Shown here: positions 14,983-53,540 of the stretch, one piece after another | How the letters are laid out: each line of letters opens with the position of its first letter | Numbering within the stretch: position 1 is the first letter of the stretch | Made by a program: the position numbers and the translations under genes | The notes under the pieces: model-generated | Databases searched by the model: none | The model's input: the letters and a program-made list of their open reading frames with translations, nothing else | Told to the model about the DNA's origin: nothing | NCBI GenBank assembly: GCA_010093485.1 | Contig: MU001508.1 | Coordinates: 262,051 to 326,050, forward strand | Direction: 5' to 3' | Length of the DNA stretch: 64,000 nt | Source of the DNA: Karstenula rhodostoma CBS 690.94 | Lineage: Eukaryota; Ascomycota; Dothideomycetes; Pleosporales; Didymosphaeriaceae

Positions 14983-16393
14983 CTGTGTCCCAGGACTAAC
15001 AGCTTGCGCCTAGGCGTAACCCACTCGACGGCCTCACATTGCTCCCATTTCCTTTTCACGATCTAGCACGAGGCGGCACGGCGTTACGATTCTGCATCTT
15101 CTTCCGAGCGCGCTCACCCTTGACGCTGCTCTTCTGCCGGACCCATTCCCTTTACTATCATTGAATAGTGTTTACTGCCCTTCGCTTCTTGTATCTACAC
15201 GTTTTCTACTCGAGCATCTCCACACCACCCGATGATGTGCGAGGCCTCGCTTTTCTCTTTGCTTCGTTTCTTGCTGTCCGGCAGTTTTATTGGCGCATAT
15301 ATCGATACCACGTTTTGGGGACTTGGGCGGCTTTTTTGGACGGGATACTGGAGATGCATGGGGAGGTGCAGAGCAAAAGTAGAATAGATGTTACAATACA
15401 TATGCATATCATATACACACATTCGTAGGTCAAAAGCTCAAGTCCATTATGCTACCGCTATATTTAGACCGATTGTATTTGGCCTCTTGTCTTGGGGCTG
15501 CTCTGTCAATGCAGGGCACCGAGCATCCCGGAGGACGCGATGGTCGGGCTAACGGAGCGGCGTTGCTAATTGAACACGCGGGATTTGGCGGCGCTCGGGC
15601 GGCGATGACATCGATTGTCGAACACTACGTGCGTGGACCCCGGTCGGAAAGATGATCGCGAGAGCCATCTGTTGCCAGCACATAGTGAGGGAAGTACTCA
15701 TCAAGGAGGTGGCAGCTCGGTGCACCCTCTCGCCAGTGCTCTGGAAGTTCGCATTTTCGAGTGGCTTCGACTGGGCTGCAATATGAAACCACGTGACCTC
15801 ACCTGGGCAATGATCACAAGGTGCGATGGCTGATCTGTGCAGGCTTGGGATACTCGGTGCCACTTTGAGCTAAACGGGCTCTTTGCCTCTTGCGTGGTGC
15901 GTGCTGGATCTCGAAGACCTGCGTTGCGCTCGAAAGCTTTTTTTGTCATTTGCGAACGTGTTTCGAGGACAGCCAATCTCCGAGCGAGCTGGCCATCTAG
16001 TGCCTCCACCGTTCAACACCACCGAAACATGGCCGGTCCATGGGACGATGTTTGCTATCCGATATGGGCGTCTGATGCAGTCTTCTGCTTAGAGTCTCCT
16101 GCCACGTTGTGTTGACAATGAGGTCCGTTGTATCCCTGAAGTTGATTTGCACAAAAATAGGAGACGATCTTCCACCACATCCTCAATGCATTCAGATAAT
16201 TCGGCCGAGCTGCCGAGATCCACTCCACCTGCATTGAGCGTCGTCCCGTCGAAGTGATCGTCCCCAGGGGGGCTAGAGAGCGCTCCAGCGCCGTTCATTA
16301 CGCACCTTATATAACGATGATTGTCTGCTGGAGACATCCTGTAGCGCTTTCACGCTCCTTTTCTTTGTACATACACTCCTAACATTTGACAAG
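14983..16393. other. intergenic, GH16 3' and beta-lactamase-like 5' flank
   Basis: No gene is recognised in these 1.4 kb. The last 90 bases contain a plausible core promoter for the next gene. Confidence 0.5.
16308..16314 (+). promoter_or_regulatory. TATA box of the beta-lactamase-fold gene
   Basis: The TTATATAA-type element lies about 80 bases upstream of the ATG at 16394, a usual distance for a highly expressed or inducible fungal gene. Confidence 0.55.
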
Positions 16394-18375
16394 ATGATTT
16401 TCTCACGCTCGCTTCTGCACTTATTACCACTACTTTCTATTACCTCTGCCTTTCCTTCTGAACGTGCTCGCAACGTACTGTCCAGGGGTAATGGAACAGC
16501 CTCGGGTGTTTACTACGGCGTTACAAGCGCGGAACATGAGGAGCGCAGCAAGAGCTTGAAAGCAGGGGGATATCGAGTCCGATCCATCAGCGCCTTCGGG
16601 GCGCCTCCGGAGGTCAAATATGCGGCTGTCTGGACGAAGGCAGACGGTGCAGAGTTCGAGACGATTGCGAGCGCTGACGAGGACACCTTCAACGCCTGGT
16701 ACGAATCTTGGAAGAACAAGGGATACGTCTCGACGCATGTGGCCGCCACTGGGCCCGCCGAAGGAGCCGTCTTCGCTGGTGTGATGGAATATGGCAATTT
16801 CACGGAGATACAGCGATGCGGCATGAACACGCCGTGGGCGTATTTGAATGCTACGATGGGTGTTGATATGATCGTCAAAGGCGTGAGCGTTTACGGATCG
16901 CCTGCCAACCACCGGTACTGCATCTTTGGCTACGAGAACGTTGGGAACAGGAAGCAGTCGACGTATTATGGGACGGATGCTAACCCGATCGACTATCAAA
17001 CGGTGCTTAACGCGGAGCTCCAGAAGCGCTTCTGGAGGCCGACATACATTGACGTTAGCAACGATCACCTTATCTCGGTCTTGTTCGATGATTCTAGTAT
17101 CGGGAAGTGGGAGGCAAAGGTCGGTCTGACGGAGGCTGAGCTTACTGCTGAGATCAAGACTCAGGCTGGACATGGACTTTCCGTGGTCCAGCTCCAGGGC
17201 GGAGGTGATGGTGACGACGTGCTCTACACGGCGATCTTCGCTGAGACGACGGTGCCCCTCCCTCGAAACTGGAACGCCAAAGGAAATATTACCGGCTTCG
17301 AAGACAACAAAGCGGTGACCTCGTCGCTCGATGCTACCATGAAGGATTGGATGGCACGCAACGGCATCCGCCAGGCCCAGCTAGCTTTCTCCCGCGACGG
17401 CAAGCTTTTCGGCGAACGCGCCTTCACGCTCGCCGAAAGCAACCGCGCCGTCGTGCAGCCCACGGACAAGTTCCTCCTCGGCAGCGTAAGCAAGATGTTC
17501 ACGCACGCCGCGACCCAGCGCCTCATCGACGACGGCCTGCTCGCCCTCGACACGCCCGTCTACCCGCTCCTAGGCTACAAGCCCGCCGACGCGCGCGCAA
17601 ACAAAATCACCGTCAACCACCTCGTCCTCCACACCGCAGGCCTCGACCGCTCCATCTCCGGCGACATCGCCTTCATGTTCCGCGATGTCGCGCGGTCAAA
17701 GAACAGCTCCTCCCCGCAGACCCTCCGCGACATGATCGAGTACATAGTCGCGCGGCCTCTGGACTACGGCATTGACGAGGACGGGTACGCATACTCCAAC
17801 TACGGGACTATGCTGCTGAGCTACGTCGTCGCCAATCTGACGGGCAAGGCGTACATGGATTTCCTCAAGGAGCGCGTCTTCACCGAGGGCGTCGAGGCGG
17901 AGCTCTTCGCCACGGCGGGCGAGGCCCACATCAACGACCCCGTCGTCCAGGAGACCATCTACACCGGTCCCTCTCCCCTGTTTCCGCAGGAGGATGTCAT
18001 CGTGCCGCAAACGGCGGGCGGCGAAGGCGATATCAAGGAGGAAGCTGTGGGTTCTTTTGGGCTGCGGGCGTCTGCGAGCACGATTGCGAGGTTCATCGGC
18101 AAGAATGGTGAGTTGTTCTTCCTCCGTGATGCTAGCTGGGTTGGTTGCTAATGATTGCCGCAGCTGTCTGGAAGATTGGGCCGCGCGATTGGGGTTACTC
18201 TCGCGACGGCAGCGTGGCGGGCGCTCGCGCGTATGCGTCCAGCGAGGGCTTGGCCAACTTTGACTGGGCTATTCTACTCAACTCGCGCGAATATTCGTCC
18301 GAGGATGAGTGGAGTGACTTGTTGTATTCTAAGCTTCCTGCTGCTTGGGCTGTGAGTAAGATGGTTGAAGCGTGA
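16394..18375 (+). CDS. secreted polyglycine-hydrolase-like protein (beta-lactamase fold)
   Basis: This is a predicted secreted serine hydrolase of 641 aa. Exons are 16394..18107 and 18164..18375 (intron GTGAGT...CCGCAG). A signal peptide (MIFSRSLLHLLPLLSITSAF) is followed at about residues 30-330 by repeats with the pattern GGYRVRSISAFG and YAAVW, matching the tandem-repeat domain found N-terminal to the hydrolase domain in fungal polyglycine hydrolases. The C-terminal class C beta-lactamase/transpeptidase-like domain has S364-V-S-K367 (SxxK nucleophile) and Y467-S-N469 (YxN). Fungal polyglycine hydrolases have this architecture and about this length, and cut glycine-rich linkers of plant class IV chitinases. 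Assignment to that activity is inference from architecture; it could be another secreted beta-lactamase-fold peptidase or esterase. Several NxT/S sites are present. Confidence 0.85.
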
Positions 18376-48775: not shown

Positions 48776-49861
48776 ATGCGTTCCGCACTCATCATCGCTA
48801 CTTTTGCCCTTGGCCTCCTTGCCGCTCCCGTTCCTGACGCTGAAATTCAAGCACTCGCACCAGTAGAGCGTGGTCTTCTCCGCGGATCAAACGGCGGATT
48901 CGTGATCTCATCTCGCGAGATCGCAGAGGAGGAAGAGGAGGTTGAGGCACGCGCCGTTCGAGGCTCAAACCGGAGGGATATTGAGGAAGGGGAAGACGAG
49001 GAGGAGTTGGAAATCCGCGCTGTTCGTGGCTCCAACGAAAACAACAAACGCGCAGTTCGCGGCTCAAACGGAAACAACAAGCGCGCTGTTCGCGGCTCAA
49101 ACCGTCGCTCTGAAGATGACGAGGAAATCGACGCCCGTGCTGTTCGCGGTTCCAACAAGCGTGCGGTGCGAGGTTCCAACCGCCGATCCGATGACGATGA
49201 GGACGAAGAGATTGAGGAGATTGACGCTCGTGCAGTGCGAGGCTCCAACCGTCGTTCTGAAGAAGACGATGACGAACTAGACACCCGCGCTGTCCGTGGA
49301 TCCAACAAGCGCTTTGCTGAGGACGAGGAAGAGGAAATCGACACCCGTGCTGTTCGTGGCTCCAACAAGCGTGCAGTCCGCGGATCCAACAAACGTGATG
49401 CTGAGGCTGAGGCTTCGCCCGCCGTTCGGGGGTCCAACAAACGCGATGCCGAAGCTGAGCCTGCCGTCCGTGGCTCTAACAAACGCGGTGCTGAGGCTGA
49501 ACCTGCCGTCCGTGGTTCCAACAAGCGTGAGCCTGCTGTTCGTGGCTCCAACAAGCGTGATGCCGAAGCTGAGCCCGCCGTCCGAGGATCGAACAAGCGT
49601 GAGGCCGAAGCTGCTGTGCGCGGTTCCAACAAGCGTGAGCCTGCCGTCCGAGGATCTAACAAACGCGAGGCCGAGGCTGCCGTCCGAGGATCCAACAAGC
49701 GCGAGGCCGAAGCTGCCGTACGCGGTTCCAACAAGCGTGAGGCCGAAGCTGCTGTCCGCGGCTCTAACAAGCGCGGCACCTGGTCCAATGGTCTCATTGA
49801 GGCCTTGAAGGCTCGTGGCTTCAGCAGCGCTGCCCTCATGAGCGTACGTGCGCCCAACTGA
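48776..49861 (+). CDS. Kex2-processed repeat precursor 1 (20 x AVRGSN)
   Basis: This secreted polyprotein precursor has 361 aa and no introns. The signal peptide is MRSALIIATFALGLLAAPVP. AVRGSN occurs 20 times between residues 60 and 331, plus one variant LLRGSN at residues 35-39. Most copies end in KR or RR, the Kex2 protease sites. Copies 1-9 are mostly preceded by acidic spacers ending in a single Arg (EIDAR, LDTR, LEIR). Copies 11-20 are preceded by KR and then EP, EAEA, DAEAEP, GAEAEP or DAEAEASP, all composed of X-Ala/X-Pro dipeptides as trimmed by Ste13-type aminopeptidase. A 28-residue tail (GTWSNGLIEALKARGF...) ends the protein. The design matches fungal Kex2-processed repeat (KEP) proteins, including alpha-factor and dikaritin precursors. 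The mature product is predicted as the hexapeptide AVRGSN; biological role unknown. Confidence 0.9.
   Translation: MRSALIIATFALGLLAAPVPDAEIQALAPVERGLLRGSNGGFVISSREIAEEEEEVEARAVRGSNRRDIEEGEDEEELEIRAVRGSNENNKRAVRGSNGNNKRAVRGSNRRSEDDEEIDARAVRGSNKRAVRGSNRRSDDDEDEEIEEIDARAVRGSNRRSEEDDDELDTRAVRGSNKRFAEDEEEEIDTRAVRGSNKRAVRGSNKRDAEAEASPAVRGSNKRDAEAEPAVRGSNKRGAEAEPAVRGSNKREPAVRGSNKRDAEAEPAVRGSNKREAEAAVRGSNKREPAVRGSNKREAEAAVRGSNKREAEAAVRGSNKREAEAAVRGSNKRGTWSNGLIEALKARGFSSAALMSVRAPN
48953..49774 (+). repeat. coding tandem repeats of precursor 1
   Basis: Twenty copies of an 18-base segment encoding AVRGSN lie within 24-60 base units. In the last third the unit is about 36 bases (core plus KR plus EAEA). 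Copies use different synonymous codons (for example GCT GTG CGC GGT, GCC GTC CGA GGA, GCC GTA CGC GGT), yet the peptide is unchanged. Confidence 0.95.
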
Positions 49862-52658
49862 TGGTCATCAACTTGATACTTGGTATGATTTTCTCCATTT
49901 CCAACGCCTGATAGTGTTGAGGACTTTGTCTTGTCCCAGCGGCACTTCGCCGAGCCCTGTGTTTTCACTCATCTTTTACTTCCTTTGTCAGATTTGTACA
50001 TGCTTTGGATGATAGTCCCCACATGGGAGAGTGCGACAGCGAGGCAAGATGCACGCAGGAAATACATATTCATGTAGACTTCAAGCCAATAAAATCCCGT
50101 CGCGCACTTCGTTGACACCAAATGGCATGCAACCGTGACCCGTACCTCGATCGTTGTGAATCTCTTCGAACGCATCAACGACCTATGAACTGACACGCTC
50201 ATCACTCTGAAGAGACTAACACTTGCACACGAAGACCTGTTGTGAAGCAGATGCCCGGGTAGAGCGTTTGCGATCACACGGGAGTTGCTGCAGTGAAATC
50301 AATATCCGGGCCCAATACATTGGTTGTCTGCGCTTGCGCTCTCCTCTTCATCCTTGAGTGACGCAGATCATTACGTAACTTTGCTGAAAATATGTGGGAC
50401 CGATCTGGAAGCAACTGATGGTATACCTATGTGCATGAAGTACTAACAAAAAAAAATTGCTTCTTGGGCGGACTGGAGCGGTATAGGCTACAAGCCTGCG
50501 CATAGACGCTGGGCGCGCCTTAGCCGCTTTTTTGGTCCCCCTTCGTTCGTGCATTAAGCACAACGCGCCTTTTTGTCCCCCCTGCTTTATAGATCCACCC
50601 CGTCTCATGTGATTATCTACAATATAGGCTGCAAGTCATCCACGTGCATATTGATAATTGCCAGTCCCTCTCATTTACGTTAACAAAACCACCATGCATT
50701 GAGTTTTATGCGCATAGCCCAGCTTATCATTGAGTTCAAGACATGTCTGACGGGCAGATTGGTGGTGTGGTCACCGCTATACTTGAAACCAATTCATGCT
50801 ACATGCGCTGTTTCGTGTGGGAGGAGGTTCACCGGATTTGTGAAACTTAGTCGGAGCCCCTGGTCATGATAACACTAATATAACGTGGTCGGGTTGATAA
50901 GTAATGTCCGCCAGGGTGTCCTTAAATTCTTATTTCTTTTTCTATTATACGCTCTATAACGCCCCAAGATGTATCTTTCTACCAATCAAAGTGTATAAGT
51001 AGGACCTTCTTCACATATATATTCTAGAACTCTGTATTGCGTTTTTCCGCGGCTTGCAGAAGCTCGCGAATAGTCAACAATTTATATATTTCAGAATCTT
51101 ACTGCTAGGATTGCGTCTACGACACTACTTACCTATCCGACCACAGTATTTAAAGTGAAGCTACTGACCCTAACCAGAATTTTATTAAGGAAACGTCGTC
51201 TATAGAAGCTCGAAATTTTGCTTTGCAACCCCTCGTAGTCAACTCCGCCTCATTCATACTGTCAGTATCTATGCCACCGCAGAAAACTACTTTTCCTCAT
51301 CTTGCACAGTGACGACACGGGGAAAACATGCACCATCTATATGCTGATCAGCCTCCAGAGACTCTACTTATGAACTTCACTGAAATGCATTATAGCTACG
51401 GTAGTCCACAAGAATCTGTGCCACGTGAGAGGTGACATTTAGGTATTCACAGCCAAAAAAAAAACCCCCCATAAAAGCTGCATAGAGGACTTTGAATCGT
51501 ATGTACGATTGTTAATTGCATACTACATGTTAAGTTAAGGTTCTCATATTCCTTGTGCAAGGGTAAATCGGCAGGCCAAAGAGATTGACTTGCCACTATT
51601 CGAACATGACTTGTTACTCAAAGTCAAAAAGAGGGACTGATATTGTATCGAAGATGTCATGAGTACAGCGAGAGAAGCTTACTACCATATGTAGATTCAT
51701 ACTAGCTCGAACCAATTCACATGTATTTGCTTGAGCGCTACCTAGGTTCGCTTAATTGATCTGTCTTTTGCTCATGGATTTGGGTCGTGGCGCAAGTGTG
51801 TGAGATTTTTCAACCCCGCATATCAAAGACCTGCATGCAGCGAGCCGAGAAAACGCCAGATTTGGACTTTCGCGTTATTCCAACGACAATCGGTTATGAG
51901 TCAGTTGTGTTCAATTGAGCCTTCTACACCATTATGTATTCTCTGTAAATAGCTCAATTGAAGTCTGCCTTGCAATATCCAGCAATTTTGAGTCCAGCGG
52001 TACCAGCTGCGGCTGATCACACTCGATCTGCACGGGTATTCGAGGAAAGCTTATGAGCGCCTTCCGGATATGATCGCAGGTACCCGAGGATCCCGTGGAA
52101 GCGCTACGGCGTAGTTCAGAGGGGCCAAGTCTAAATGGGGTCCATTCCACCATTGGCTGAGGCCGTGCCGGCAGTTCACGAACGATAAGCTAAACACGGC
52201 TGAATATATTCAGCCGGCAGTAACTCCGACCCAAGCGCTTAAATGGATTGCGGTTTTGGTAGTAGTCTATGCAGTTGTAACTTCGAGCCAATAGGAGAGC
52301 TAAAAGGTCTGTACGCTTAGCTCGTCGTGGACTAGCTTAGGGTCGTGGTGCTTTCACGTCTTGTCTGTGATCAATGACGACCACGCATAGCCTCATTCAC
52401 CTGTGCGGCACAGCCAGCACTGCAGGACAGGAAACACTCTAGCAGTGTCTCTATCACTGCTTCCAAGTTTATACTCGAGCAAACTGCGAAAGGTATAAAA
52501 CCTGCGTGTTTGCCATCTTCCAAGGAACAGAAAACCAACAAACCATTCTTTCCAATAATCTTCAATTCACAGGCTGTGCCTTTATAACTTCAAGTGCTGA
52601 GCACTCTCTATACACCAAAACCAATCTTGAAAAACATTCATACACATCCACCGACAAC
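49862..52658. other. 2.8 kb spacer between the two precursor genes, partly AT-rich
   Basis: No intact gene is recognised. The part from about 50600 to 52000 is clearly richer in A+T than the rest of the window and dense in stop codons. It may hold old, mutated mobile-element sequence, but no terminal repeats or coding remnants are recognisable. The last 200 bases are the promoter and leader of precursor 2. Confidence 0.5.
52494..52500 (+). promoter_or_regulatory. TATA box of repeat precursor 2
   Basis: TATAAAA lies about 160 bases upstream of the ATG at 52659, followed by an AC-rich leader typical of well-expressed fungal genes. Confidence 0.5.
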
Positions 52659-53540
52659 ATGCGTTCCACATTCATCATTGCTACTTGCGCGCTCGCTGTC
52701 TTCGCTGCTCCTGTTCCAGAGCCCAACCCAATCTACAAGAGCGGTGGAACAGGGTGCGCCAGGGTATTAGCTGGTGTATGCGTCAAGACAGGCAAACGCG
52801 AAGTTGAAGCTCCAGTCAGGTCAAACACCAAGCATGCACCCTCACCGTTCGGCAGAAGTTCACACCCACGGGATGTTGAAGACGACGATGAGATTACCTT
52901 CGAAACTCGTTCGCCTGCACCGGAGCCATTTGGTCGAAGCTCACACCCGCGAGATGTTGAAGACGACGATGAGGTTACCTTCGAAACTCGTTCGCCTGAA
53001 CCGGAGCCTTTTGGCCGAAGCTCACATCCGCGTGGTGTCGAAGACGACGATGAAATAACGCTGCAGGTGCGTGACGCTGTGAGAAACCAAGGCCGTTCTC
53101 CTGTCAGGTTGGGCCGACCCAAGAATTCCCGCAGCGTTGCACAAGAGGAGGAGGATGTTGAAGCACGCGCCATTAGAAACCAGGGCCGTTCTCAAGAGGT
53201 GGAGGATGTTGAAGCACGCGCCATTAGAAACCAGGGCCGTTCTCAAGAGGTGGAGGATGTTGAAGCACGCGCCATTAGAAACCAAGGCAAGCGATCGGTA
53301 CGAGAGAAGAAAGTGTCTGAAGAGGACGTCGAATCTCGCGCTATTAGGAATCAGGGACGCAATGCTGAGCCTGAACCTTTCGGTCGCGCCGGTGCTGGCA
53401 AGCGTACTCCCGAGGCTGAACCTGGCTTCACCCGTGCCAAACCTGGTTACCGCCGATCTGCCTCAGCAGAGCCAGGCACTGTTCGACCTTCGAACAAGCG
53501 CACCGCAGATGCCGAGCCTATCAACCGCATCCATGGTTAA
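52659..53540 (+). CDS. Kex2-processed repeat precursor 2 (several peptides)
   Basis: This secreted polyprotein precursor has 293 aa and no introns, related to precursor 1. The signal peptide MRSTFIIATCALAVFAAPVP and about 20 bases around the ATG match those of precursor 1. In order it contains a two-cysteine segment (C33, C41) ending in TGKR at 44-47; three 27-residue repeats with FGRSSHPR and acidic DVEDDDEITFETR; AVRNQG once; AIRNQG four times after EDVEAR or EDVESR; then four different peptides each after X-Ala/X-Pro spacers. These four are NAEPEP|FGRAGAG|KR, TPEAEP|GFTRAKPGY|RR, SASAEP|GTVRPSN|KR and TADAEP|INRIHG|end. GTVRPSN resembles the AVRGSN of precursor 1. Most AIRNQG and FGRSSHP copies are bounded by single Arg, a weaker Kex2 site. 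Function unknown. Confidence 0.87.
   Translation: MRSTFIIATCALAVFAAPVPEPNPIYKSGGTGCARVLAGVCVKTGKREVEAPVRSNTKHAPSPFGRSSHPRDVEDDDEITFETRSPAPEPFGRSSHPRDVEDDDEVTFETRSPEPEPFGRSSHPRGVEDDDEITLQVRDAVRNQGRSPVRLGRPKNSRSVAQEEEDVEARAIRNQGRSQEVEDVEARAIRNQGRSQEVEDVEARAIRNQGKRSVREKKVSEEDVESRAIRNQGRNAEPEPFGRAGAGKRTPEAEPGFTRAKPGYRRSASAEPGTVRPSNKRTADAEPINRIHG
52845..53060 (+). repeat. 81-base coding repeats of precursor 2
   Basis: Three tandem units of 81 bases (27 codons, the last partial) encode FGRSSHPR plus an acidic spacer. The units are highly similar at the nucleotide level. Confidence 0.9.
53151..53289 (+). repeat. 51-base coding repeats of precursor 2
   Basis: Three almost identical tandem copies of a 51-base unit encode EDVEARAIRNQGRSQEV. 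A fourth, diverged copy follows near 53320. Confidence 0.92.

What the first reader, a model, noticed from the sequence alone, without database searches (positions are those of the whole stretch)
48776..49861. Secreted precursor with 20 exact copies of the hexapeptide AVRGSN
The protein has a signal peptide and 20 invariant AVRGSN copies, mostly followed by KR or RR. Established knowledge: Kex2 cleaves after KR/RR in the late Golgi, and fungal Kex2-processed repeat proteins include yeast alpha-factor, dikaritin precursors (ustiloxin, phomopsin, asperipin) and epichloecyclin precursors. I do not recognise AVRGSN as any described peptide. Inference: the gene encodes a multicopy secreted hexapeptide with signalling, effector or RiPP role.
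Basis: partly seen in the sequence, partly recalled or inferred. Interest (0 to 1): 0.9.

Follow-up and report, generated by a model that had tools for sequence, protein, structure and literature searches.

The report
Fungal multicopy hexapeptide precursor, alpha-factor-style spacers
A fungus, apparently from the Paraphaeosphaeria family, carries a precursor laid out like the yeast mating-factor gene that should release about twenty copies of one small peptide, AVRGSN, probably an unmodified secreted signal rather than a mating pheromone or a cyclic toxin.

Summary
In detail: 48776-49861 (+) is one uninterrupted 361-codon ORF with an apparent signal peptide and 20 exact AVRGSN copies; 18 are followed directly by KR or RR. 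The copies need at least 15 synonymous changes and no amino-acid change.

Ten C-half copies follow KR plus in-register X-Ala/X-Pro dipeptides, the alpha-factor Ste13 layout. Six N-half copies follow acidic spacers ending in aliphatic-x-x-Arg, close to a described extended Kex2 site. A sister precursor (KEP2, 52659-53540) with the same leader lies 2.8 kb downstream. The named relatives are Didymosphaeriaceae; their cores drift (AVRGSD, AVRGNQ, GFRSNQ) while the leader and C-terminal tail mostly stay.

Best reading: a Kex2-processed repeat protein (KEP) giving a linear, non-mating secreted peptide. The dikaritin reading is disfavoured: the nearest UstYa match is 273 kb away and the core has no aromatic residue, whereas 3 of 8 other KEP-like loci examined in this genome lie within about 1.5 kb of UstYa matches. 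Two alpha-factor-like loci lie elsewhere. Expression, cleavage and activity are untested; the peptide might also be cut inside the core. A new member of a known class.

The parts
48776..49861 (+). KEP1: precursor of the AVRGSN hexapeptide, 361 aa, single open exon
   Evidence: related protein P0001
48776..48826 (+). apparent signal peptide (17 residues), similar to that of KEP2 and of the nine relatives aligned
   Evidence: helix 2-16 in the low-confidence model; cleavage point inferred by eye
48953..49390 (+). N-terminal half: copies 1-10 of AVRGSN; 6 follow acidic spacers ending in V/L/I-x-x-R, 4 follow KR directly
49397..49774 (+). C-terminal half: copies 11-20 of AVRGSN, each preceded by KR and 1 to 4 X-A/X-P dipeptides and followed by KR
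49775..49858 (+). C-terminal tail, 28 residues; over 21 positions 18 are kept in P0001, 18 in P0002, 12 in P0019; short predicted helix (335-346)
52659..53540 (+). KEP2: sister precursor, 293 aa, same leader; AIRNQG and FGRSSHP repeats, and GFTRAKPGY, GTVRPSN, INRIHG each once behind X-A/X-P spacers
   Evidence: (E 4.6e-7 to KEP1)

Best explanation
KEP1 is a Kex2-processed repeat protein (KEP). After signal-peptide removal it would be cut in the late Golgi by the genome's kexin after KR/RR and after aliphatic-x-x-Arg; a Kex1-type carboxypeptidase would remove C-terminal K/R; a Ste13-type dipeptidyl aminopeptidase would strip the X-Ala/X-Pro spacers. The product would be about 18 identical free AVRGSN hexapeptides plus two with ENN or GNN tails, secreted linear and unmodified. 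The most likely role is a peptide signal of the fungus itself, neither its mating pheromone nor a dikaritin toxin, made beside the peptides of the sister gene KEP2. Shown by sequence: ORF, repeats, spacers, relatives, encoded kexin and dipeptidyl peptidases, distance from UstYa. Inferred: secretion, each cleavage, linear form, signalling role.
For: 20 invariant copies with only synonymous change. All 10 C-half spacers are whole X-A/X-P dipeptides in register; for the 5 distinct spacers this has a chance of 3e-6 from their own letters. In 39 of 39 cores of three types (AVR, AIRN, GFR) that are preceded by a single Arg, P4 is V/I/L/M/F (14 proteins; the same 39 of 39 over all 21 distinct proteins held; the proteins are related, so these are not independent); for the six in KEP1 the chance from spacer composition is 1.2e-5. 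Kex2 is described as preferring Leu or another aliphatic residue at P4, with variation allowed at P2 (PMC8528282, passages). In-silico processing gives 18 clean AVRGSN (its single-Arg rule was written after seeing these sites). One P_proprotein match (kexin, C13) and three DPPIV_N matches (two read as long ORFs). P0019 has AVRGNQ five times, four of them behind DAEAEP.
Against: No transcript, peptide or activity data. Single-Arg sites: Asp at P3, present in 4 of the 6 in KEP1, is reported unfavourable for Kex2, and Ala at P2 (3 of 6) is not among the alternative P2 residues listed (PMC8528282). The P4 rule is not general in the family: of 41 single Args followed by two or more X-A/X-P dipeptides in 21 proteins, only 23 have V/I/L/M/F at P4 (SHPR seven times). 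KEP1 also has three aliphatic-x-x-Arg sites that do not precede a core (ISSR, LKAR, MSVR). The core's own Arg could be cut: it reads R-A-V-R before GSN in 10 copies and P-A-V-R or A-A-V-R in the other 10, and Ala or Pro at P4 is also said to be tolerated; that would give GSN instead. Only 5 of 13 cores in the close relative P0001 are exact AVRGSN, and P0002 has GFRSNQ-type cores, so the exact peptide is not conserved. Nothing tested bears on a receptor. A Kex1-type carboxypeptidase was not searched for.
Confidence: 0.65

Rival explanations
1. AVRGSN is a linear peptide made for another organism (host-directed effector, antimicrobial or competitor-directed peptide) rather than a self-signal; the processing is as in the best explanation.
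For: C. cinerea kep knockouts had no detectable phenotype and the authors suggest a role in interaction with the biotic environment (PMC9769878, abstract and passages). Drift of the core between relatives would fit an arms race.
Against: No lifestyle or expression evidence for this genome; the core is small and hydrophilic with one charged side chain.
Confidence: 0.25
2. The intact, highly charged repeat protein is a wall or surface structural protein and is not cleaved to small peptides.
For: Cleavage was not shown here; repeat proteins can be structural (general knowledge).
Against: In-register X-A/X-P spacers and an aliphatic P4 at the six single-Arg sites before cores are hard to explain without proteolysis; no cysteine; low-confidence, largely disordered model (alignment of only 3 sequences).
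Confidence: 0.07
3. KEP1 is a dikaritin-type RiPP precursor whose AVRGSN core is cyclised by UstYa-type oxidases encoded elsewhere.
For: Dikaritin precursors share the signal peptide plus Kex2-repeat layout (PMC9769878 and PMC7329392, passages). The genome gives 59 UstYa matches, so such enzymes exist; and two other KEP-like loci with Tyr in the protein (C5, C16) also lie far from any UstYa match, so distance alone does not sort KEPs.
Against: No UstYa match in the window; nearest 273 kb away. Core has no Tyr, Trp, Phe or His. Three other KEPs of this genome, all with Tyr in the core, lie within about 1.5 kb of UstYa matches. Twenty window ORFs scanned with Pfam include no tyrosinase or UstYa domain.
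Confidence: 0.06
4. AVRGSN is the alpha-type mating pheromone of this fungus.
For: Layout is that of alpha-factor precursors; a Ste2 receptor gene is present; the Pleosporales motif PYG[LM]P[IV]G gives no match and none of the 18 PYGxPxG matches lies in a KEP-like context.
Against: Two other loci with apparent signal peptides and KR-EAEA/EAEP spacers encode alpha-factor-like peptides: W(H/Q)SGF with LPGQPIG on C14, NCRFPGMPC with LPGQPIG on C15. Six residues is below the 9-24 range given for alpha pheromones (PMC6339444, Results).
Confidence: 0.05

Closest known systems
Kex2-processed repeat proteins (KEPs), surveys PMC6339444 and PMC7329392
   Same: apparent signal peptide, at least three near-identical cores between dibasic sites, repeats filling much of the protein
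   Different: the PMC6339444 pipeline cuts at KR/RR/KK only; here six copies are bounded upstream by aliphatic-x-x-Arg, and the two halves of one precursor use two spacer types
Ascomycete alpha-pheromone precursors (yeast MFalpha1 type)
   Same: KR followed by X-A/X-P dipeptide spacers before cores
   Different: core is 6 aa and unlike the pheromone motifs described; alpha-factor-like loci lie elsewhere in this genome; no Pfam mating-factor domain
Dikaritin precursors (ustiloxin, phomopsin, asperipin) with UstYa
   Same: signal peptide and Kex2 repeat layout
   Different: no UstYa match within 273 kb, no aromatic residue in the core
Basidiomycete KEPs with STE13 motifs giving ...AADW peptides (Lentinula, Pleurotus; PMC9769878, passages)
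   Same: non-pheromone KEPs with X-A/X-P spacers, there detected as processed peptides
   Different: core unrelated; here an ascomycete and no mass spectrometry
Unnamed 'hypothetical' proteins of Paraphaeosphaeria and Bimuria (Didymosphaeriaceae), e.g. P0002, P0005, P0009, P0010, P0017
   Same: same leader, similar spacers and Arg-centred cores; P0002 also shares the tail
   Different: cores differ (GFRSNQ, AIRNEG, FGRGSHP, INRIFG and others)

Membership tests
KEP (Kex2-processed repeat protein) | N-terminal signal peptide | tested here: inconclusive
   Typical by eye and shared by the relatives aligned; no predictor run
KEP (Kex2-processed repeat protein) | three or more similar cores bounded by KR/RR/KK | tested here: met
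   20 copies; 18 followed directly by KR or RR, 2 by ENNKR/GNNKR; upstream, 14 follow KR directly or KR plus dipeptides, 6 a single Arg
KEP (Kex2-processed repeat protein) | repeats cover at least 15% of the protein (PMC6339444 threshold) | tested here: met
   20 x 6 of 361 residues = 33% (threshold)
KEP (Kex2-processed repeat protein) | a kexin encoded in the genome | tested here: met
   one P_proprotein match, C13, in a 782-aa subtilase-like ORF with a hydrophobic segment near its C terminus (segment by eye)
KEP (Kex2-processed repeat protein) | core peptide released in vivo | not testable with these tools
   needs peptidomics
alpha-type mating pheromone precursor | X-A/X-P spacers after the dibasic site | tested here: met
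   10 of 10 C-half spacers; none in the N half apart from one FA
alpha-type mating pheromone precursor | core like described pheromones (PYGxPxG or two-Cys type, 9-24 aa) | tested here: not met
   AVRGSN is 6 aa with none of these motifs; alpha-factor-like cores lie on C14 and C15
dikaritin RiPP precursor | UstYa (DUF3328) genes next to the precursor | tested here: not met
   nearest UstYa match 273 kb away; three other KEPs of the genome at about 0.6-1.5 kb
dikaritin RiPP precursor | Tyr in the core for cyclisation | tested here: not met
   no Y, W, F or H in AVRGSN

The most novel reading that the evidence does not exclude
KEP1 and KEP2 form a neuropeptide-precursor-like system in Didymosphaeriaceae: one gene makes about 20 copies of a single peptide, its neighbour a mixture of related Arg-centred peptides, all released by the alpha-factor machinery but serving non-mating cell-to-cell signalling through a receptor not yet known, with leader and tail kept while the peptide diverges between lineages.
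Probability: 0.3. Interest if true: 0.75.

Novelty: new member of a known kind. Interest (0 to 1): 0.47.

Why it matters
Most KEPs have no known product or role. This one predicts an exact mass for one abundant hexapeptide. PMC6339444 (Results) states that the STE13 signature is generally dedicated to alpha pheromones in Ascomycota; here it sits on a gene that is probably not the pheromone, and a KR-[ED]A-[ED][AP] signature also occurs in the three UstYa-adjacent KEPs of the same genome. If aliphatic-x-x-Arg sites are cut, surveys that cut only at KR/RR/KK miss product ends.

Tried and rejected
Dikaritin/RiPP: disfavoured on UstYa distance and core chemistry. Mating pheromone: disfavoured on the core and on alpha-factor-like loci elsewhere. 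Antisense gene: a 373-aa antisense ORF exists but its repeats vary. Amphipathic, candidalysin-like tail: no support; the helical hydrophobic moment of three tail segments is reached or exceeded by 92-95% of shuffles. Folded protein: the model has mean pLDDT 44.6 and pTM 0.14 from an alignment of 3 sequences, so low confidence is also due to the thin alignment; it shows helices at 2-16, 296-329, 335-346 and 351-355; no structure search was made. Pfam: no family at the curated cut-off for KEP1, KEP2 and eight relatives. A general P4 rule for single-Arg sites: not borne out beyond three core types (23 of 41).

Literature: eight text searches. AVRGSN: 0 papers. Six family strings: GFRSNQ, AIRNQG, AVRGNQ, FGRGSHP and IEALKARGF had 0 occurrences; 6 papers hold only the letters nringr (listing). 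Paraphaeosphaeria with Kex2: only PMC7329392, one mention, in a genus list for a KEP type mostly accompanied by DUF3328 genes. The Didymosphaeriaceae search listed 8 of 981 partial matches, none holding that name.

Limits of the counts. One search lists 59 UstYa exon matches, not genes, from the best candidates only. and one search scored only the 7995 candidates sharing most words. The 8 other KEP-like loci are C3, C4, C5, C14 (two), C15, C16 and C18; an apparent signal peptide was seen by eye for C3, C4, C14 (two), C15 and C18, not established for C5 and C16. C5 is 144 kb from a UstYa match, C16 has none on its contig. One search used 14 of the 21 distinct proteins held; one search used all 21. 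KEP2 was first given one codon early (52656), so one extra residue stood before Met; the start is 52659. P0001 and P0003 were trimmed to an internal Met (P0001; P0003). The end of the C18 KEP used for its distance was my estimate.

Full report
OBSERVATION. The ORF 48776-49861 (+) is real and uninterrupted (361 aa). It holds 20 exact AVRGSN copies; 14 are followed by KR, 4 by RR, 2 by ENNKR or GNNKR. The copies are written in 18 different 18-mers, differ at a mean of 3.4 of 6 third positions and at none of 12 first and second positions, and imply at least 15 synonymous and no replacement changes. This points to selection on the peptide rather than a fresh DNA repeat. The antisense ORF over the repeats varies between copies. 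In the 44.3 Mb genome a degenerate AVRGSN pattern (CGN and TCN codons only) matches these 20 places and one other, against 2 for the control.

ANATOMY. After a 17-residue apparent signal peptide (by eye) the precursor has two halves. In the N-terminal half, copies 1-10, four cores follow KR directly and six follow acidic spacers ending in VEAR, LEIR, IDAR (twice), LDTR or IDTR. In the C-terminal half, copies 11-20, each core follows KR plus 1 to 4 dipeptides that are all X-Ala or X-Pro: DAEAEASP, DAEAEP, GAEAEP, EP, EAEA. The five distinct spacers have this register with a chance of 3e-6 from their own letters. That is the Ste13 signature of alpha-factor precursors (PMC6339444, Results and pipeline sections read; PMC9769878, passages). 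After the last KR comes a 28-residue tail.

SINGLE-ARG SITES. For three core types (AVR, AIRN, GFR) 39 of 39 cores preceded by a single Arg have V, I, L, M or F at P4 (and the same over all 21 distinct proteins); the proteins are related, so these are not 39 independent cases. In KEP1 alone the six sites have a chance of 1.2e-5 from spacer composition. PMC8528282 (passages) gives Kex2 a preference for Leu or another aliphatic residue at P4, tolerance at P2, and an LxxR search motif. Against: the same passages call Asp at P3 unfavourable (4 of the 6 KEP1 sites) and do not list Ala among the alternative P2 residues (3 of 6). A wider count, single Arg followed by two or more X-A/X-P dipeptides in 21 proteins, finds V/I/L/M/F at P4 in only 23 of 41, SHPR being the commonest exception, so either other single-Arg sites are cut as well or the rule is specific to some cores. 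KEP1 also has ISSR, LKAR and MSVR, which precede no core. The Arg inside the core could be cut too: 10 copies read R-A-V-R, 6 P-A-V-R and 4 A-A-V-R before GSN.

PREDICTED PRODUCTS. Cutting after KR/RR and at aliphatic-acidic-x-Arg, removing C-terminal K/R and trimming X-A/X-P gives 18 AVRGSN, one AVRGSNENN, one AVRGSNGNN and the tail. The single-Arg rule was written after seeing the sites, so this is a consistency check, not a test.

SISTER GENE. KEP2 (52659-53540, +; 293 aa) has the same leader and is the only strong match to KEP1 in the genome (E 4.6e-7; two others at E above 1). By the same rules it releases GFTRAKPGY, GTVRPSN and INRIHG once each behind X-A/X-P spacers and AIRNQG once cleanly; the other AIRNQG and the FGRSSHP copies keep C-terminal extensions unless further single-Arg sites are cut.

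FAMILY. None has a described function. The closest, P0001, has 13 AVR-type cores of which 5 are exact AVRGSN and 4 AVRGSD. P0019 has five AVRGNQ, four behind DAEAEP, but not the leader; P0002 and P0003 have GFRSNQ and GFRGNQ cores, and P0003 ends before the tail. Over 21 tail positions 18 are kept in P0001, 18 in P0002 and 12 in P0019. VRGSN also appears twice in P0004 and once each in P0008 and P0012. Pfam has no family for the ten proteins scanned.

MACHINERY AND COMPARISON WITHIN THE GENOME. One kexin match (C13); three DPPIV_N matches, of which one ORF on C13 has an N-terminal anchor-like segment and one on C1 a signal-like start (by eye) and the third, on C8, carries two stops; Ste2 on C1. 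A DNA pattern for KR-[ED]-A-[ED]-[AP] gave 42 matches against 17 for its control. Together with L024, 8 other KEP-like loci were examined: 3 lie within about 1.5 kb of UstYa matches and have Tyr in the core, C4 (ATYAPLVYTGG), C14 (AYTRVDGSPLGFKIN) and C18 (WYDITYVD); 5 do not, namely C3 (RVYDHGAVN, 72 kb), C5 (144 kb), C16 (none on the contig) and two alpha-factor-like loci, C14 (WHSGF and LPGQPIG) and C15 (NCRFPGMPC and LPGQPIG). KEP1 is 273 kb from the nearest UstYa match. Neighbours of KEP1 are dynein light intermediate chain, nitronate monooxygenase and DUF3176 on one side, YEATS, RIO and ATG17 domains on the other: not a recognisable biosynthetic cluster.

MECHANISM. Best supported: a KEP releasing a linear AVRGSN peptide by kexin, carboxypeptidase and dipeptidyl aminopeptidase. 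Cleavage and secretion are inferred; the signalling role is inferred from the alpha-factor layout, the lack of modification genes nearby and the invariant core. A role towards other organisms remains a serious rival (0.25, overlapping with the best explanation in its processing part). Uncleaved structural protein, dikaritin and mating pheromone are each 0.07 or less.

NOVELTY. KEPs are a known and very diverse class (7878 in PMC7329392, abstract). These proteins and cores were not found in the text searches made, but the survey supplements could not be opened. I call it a new member of a known kind, with two spacer types in one precursor and a sister multi-peptide gene as the unusual points.

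Noticed in passing
52659-53540 (+): KEP2, a multi-peptide sister precursor with the same leader as KEP1.
   Followed up: yes
L065/L066 (genome C14:1512727-1512865) and L069/L070 (C15:1553327-1553530): Alpha-factor-like precursors (W(H/Q)SGF, LPGQPIG, NCRFPGMPC) whose repeats lie in separate short open stretches, as if introns interrupt the repeats.
   Followed up: partly
L049-L051 (C4), L064 (C14), L001 (C18): Three KEPs with Tyr-containing cores next to UstYa matches: likely dikaritin clusters, also bearing X-A spacers.
   Followed up: partly
L024:1294-2241 (C3): Another KEP-like ORF with six RVYDHGAVNKR repeats and an apparent signal peptide; nearest UstYa match about 72 kb away.
   Followed up: partly
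L052 (C5), L072 (C16): Two KEP-like ORFs with repeated ...WGKR ends (for example STIGWGKEKR, VSFSWGKR), not near UstYa matches; signal peptides not established.
   Followed up: no
48850-49968 (-): A 373-aa open antisense frame over the KEP1 repeats; its copies vary in sequence, so it looks like a by-product of codon make-up.
   Followed up: yes
16277-18148 (+): ORF with a beta-lactamase domain and polyglycine hydrolase-like repeats (Pfam BTRD1).
   Followed up: no
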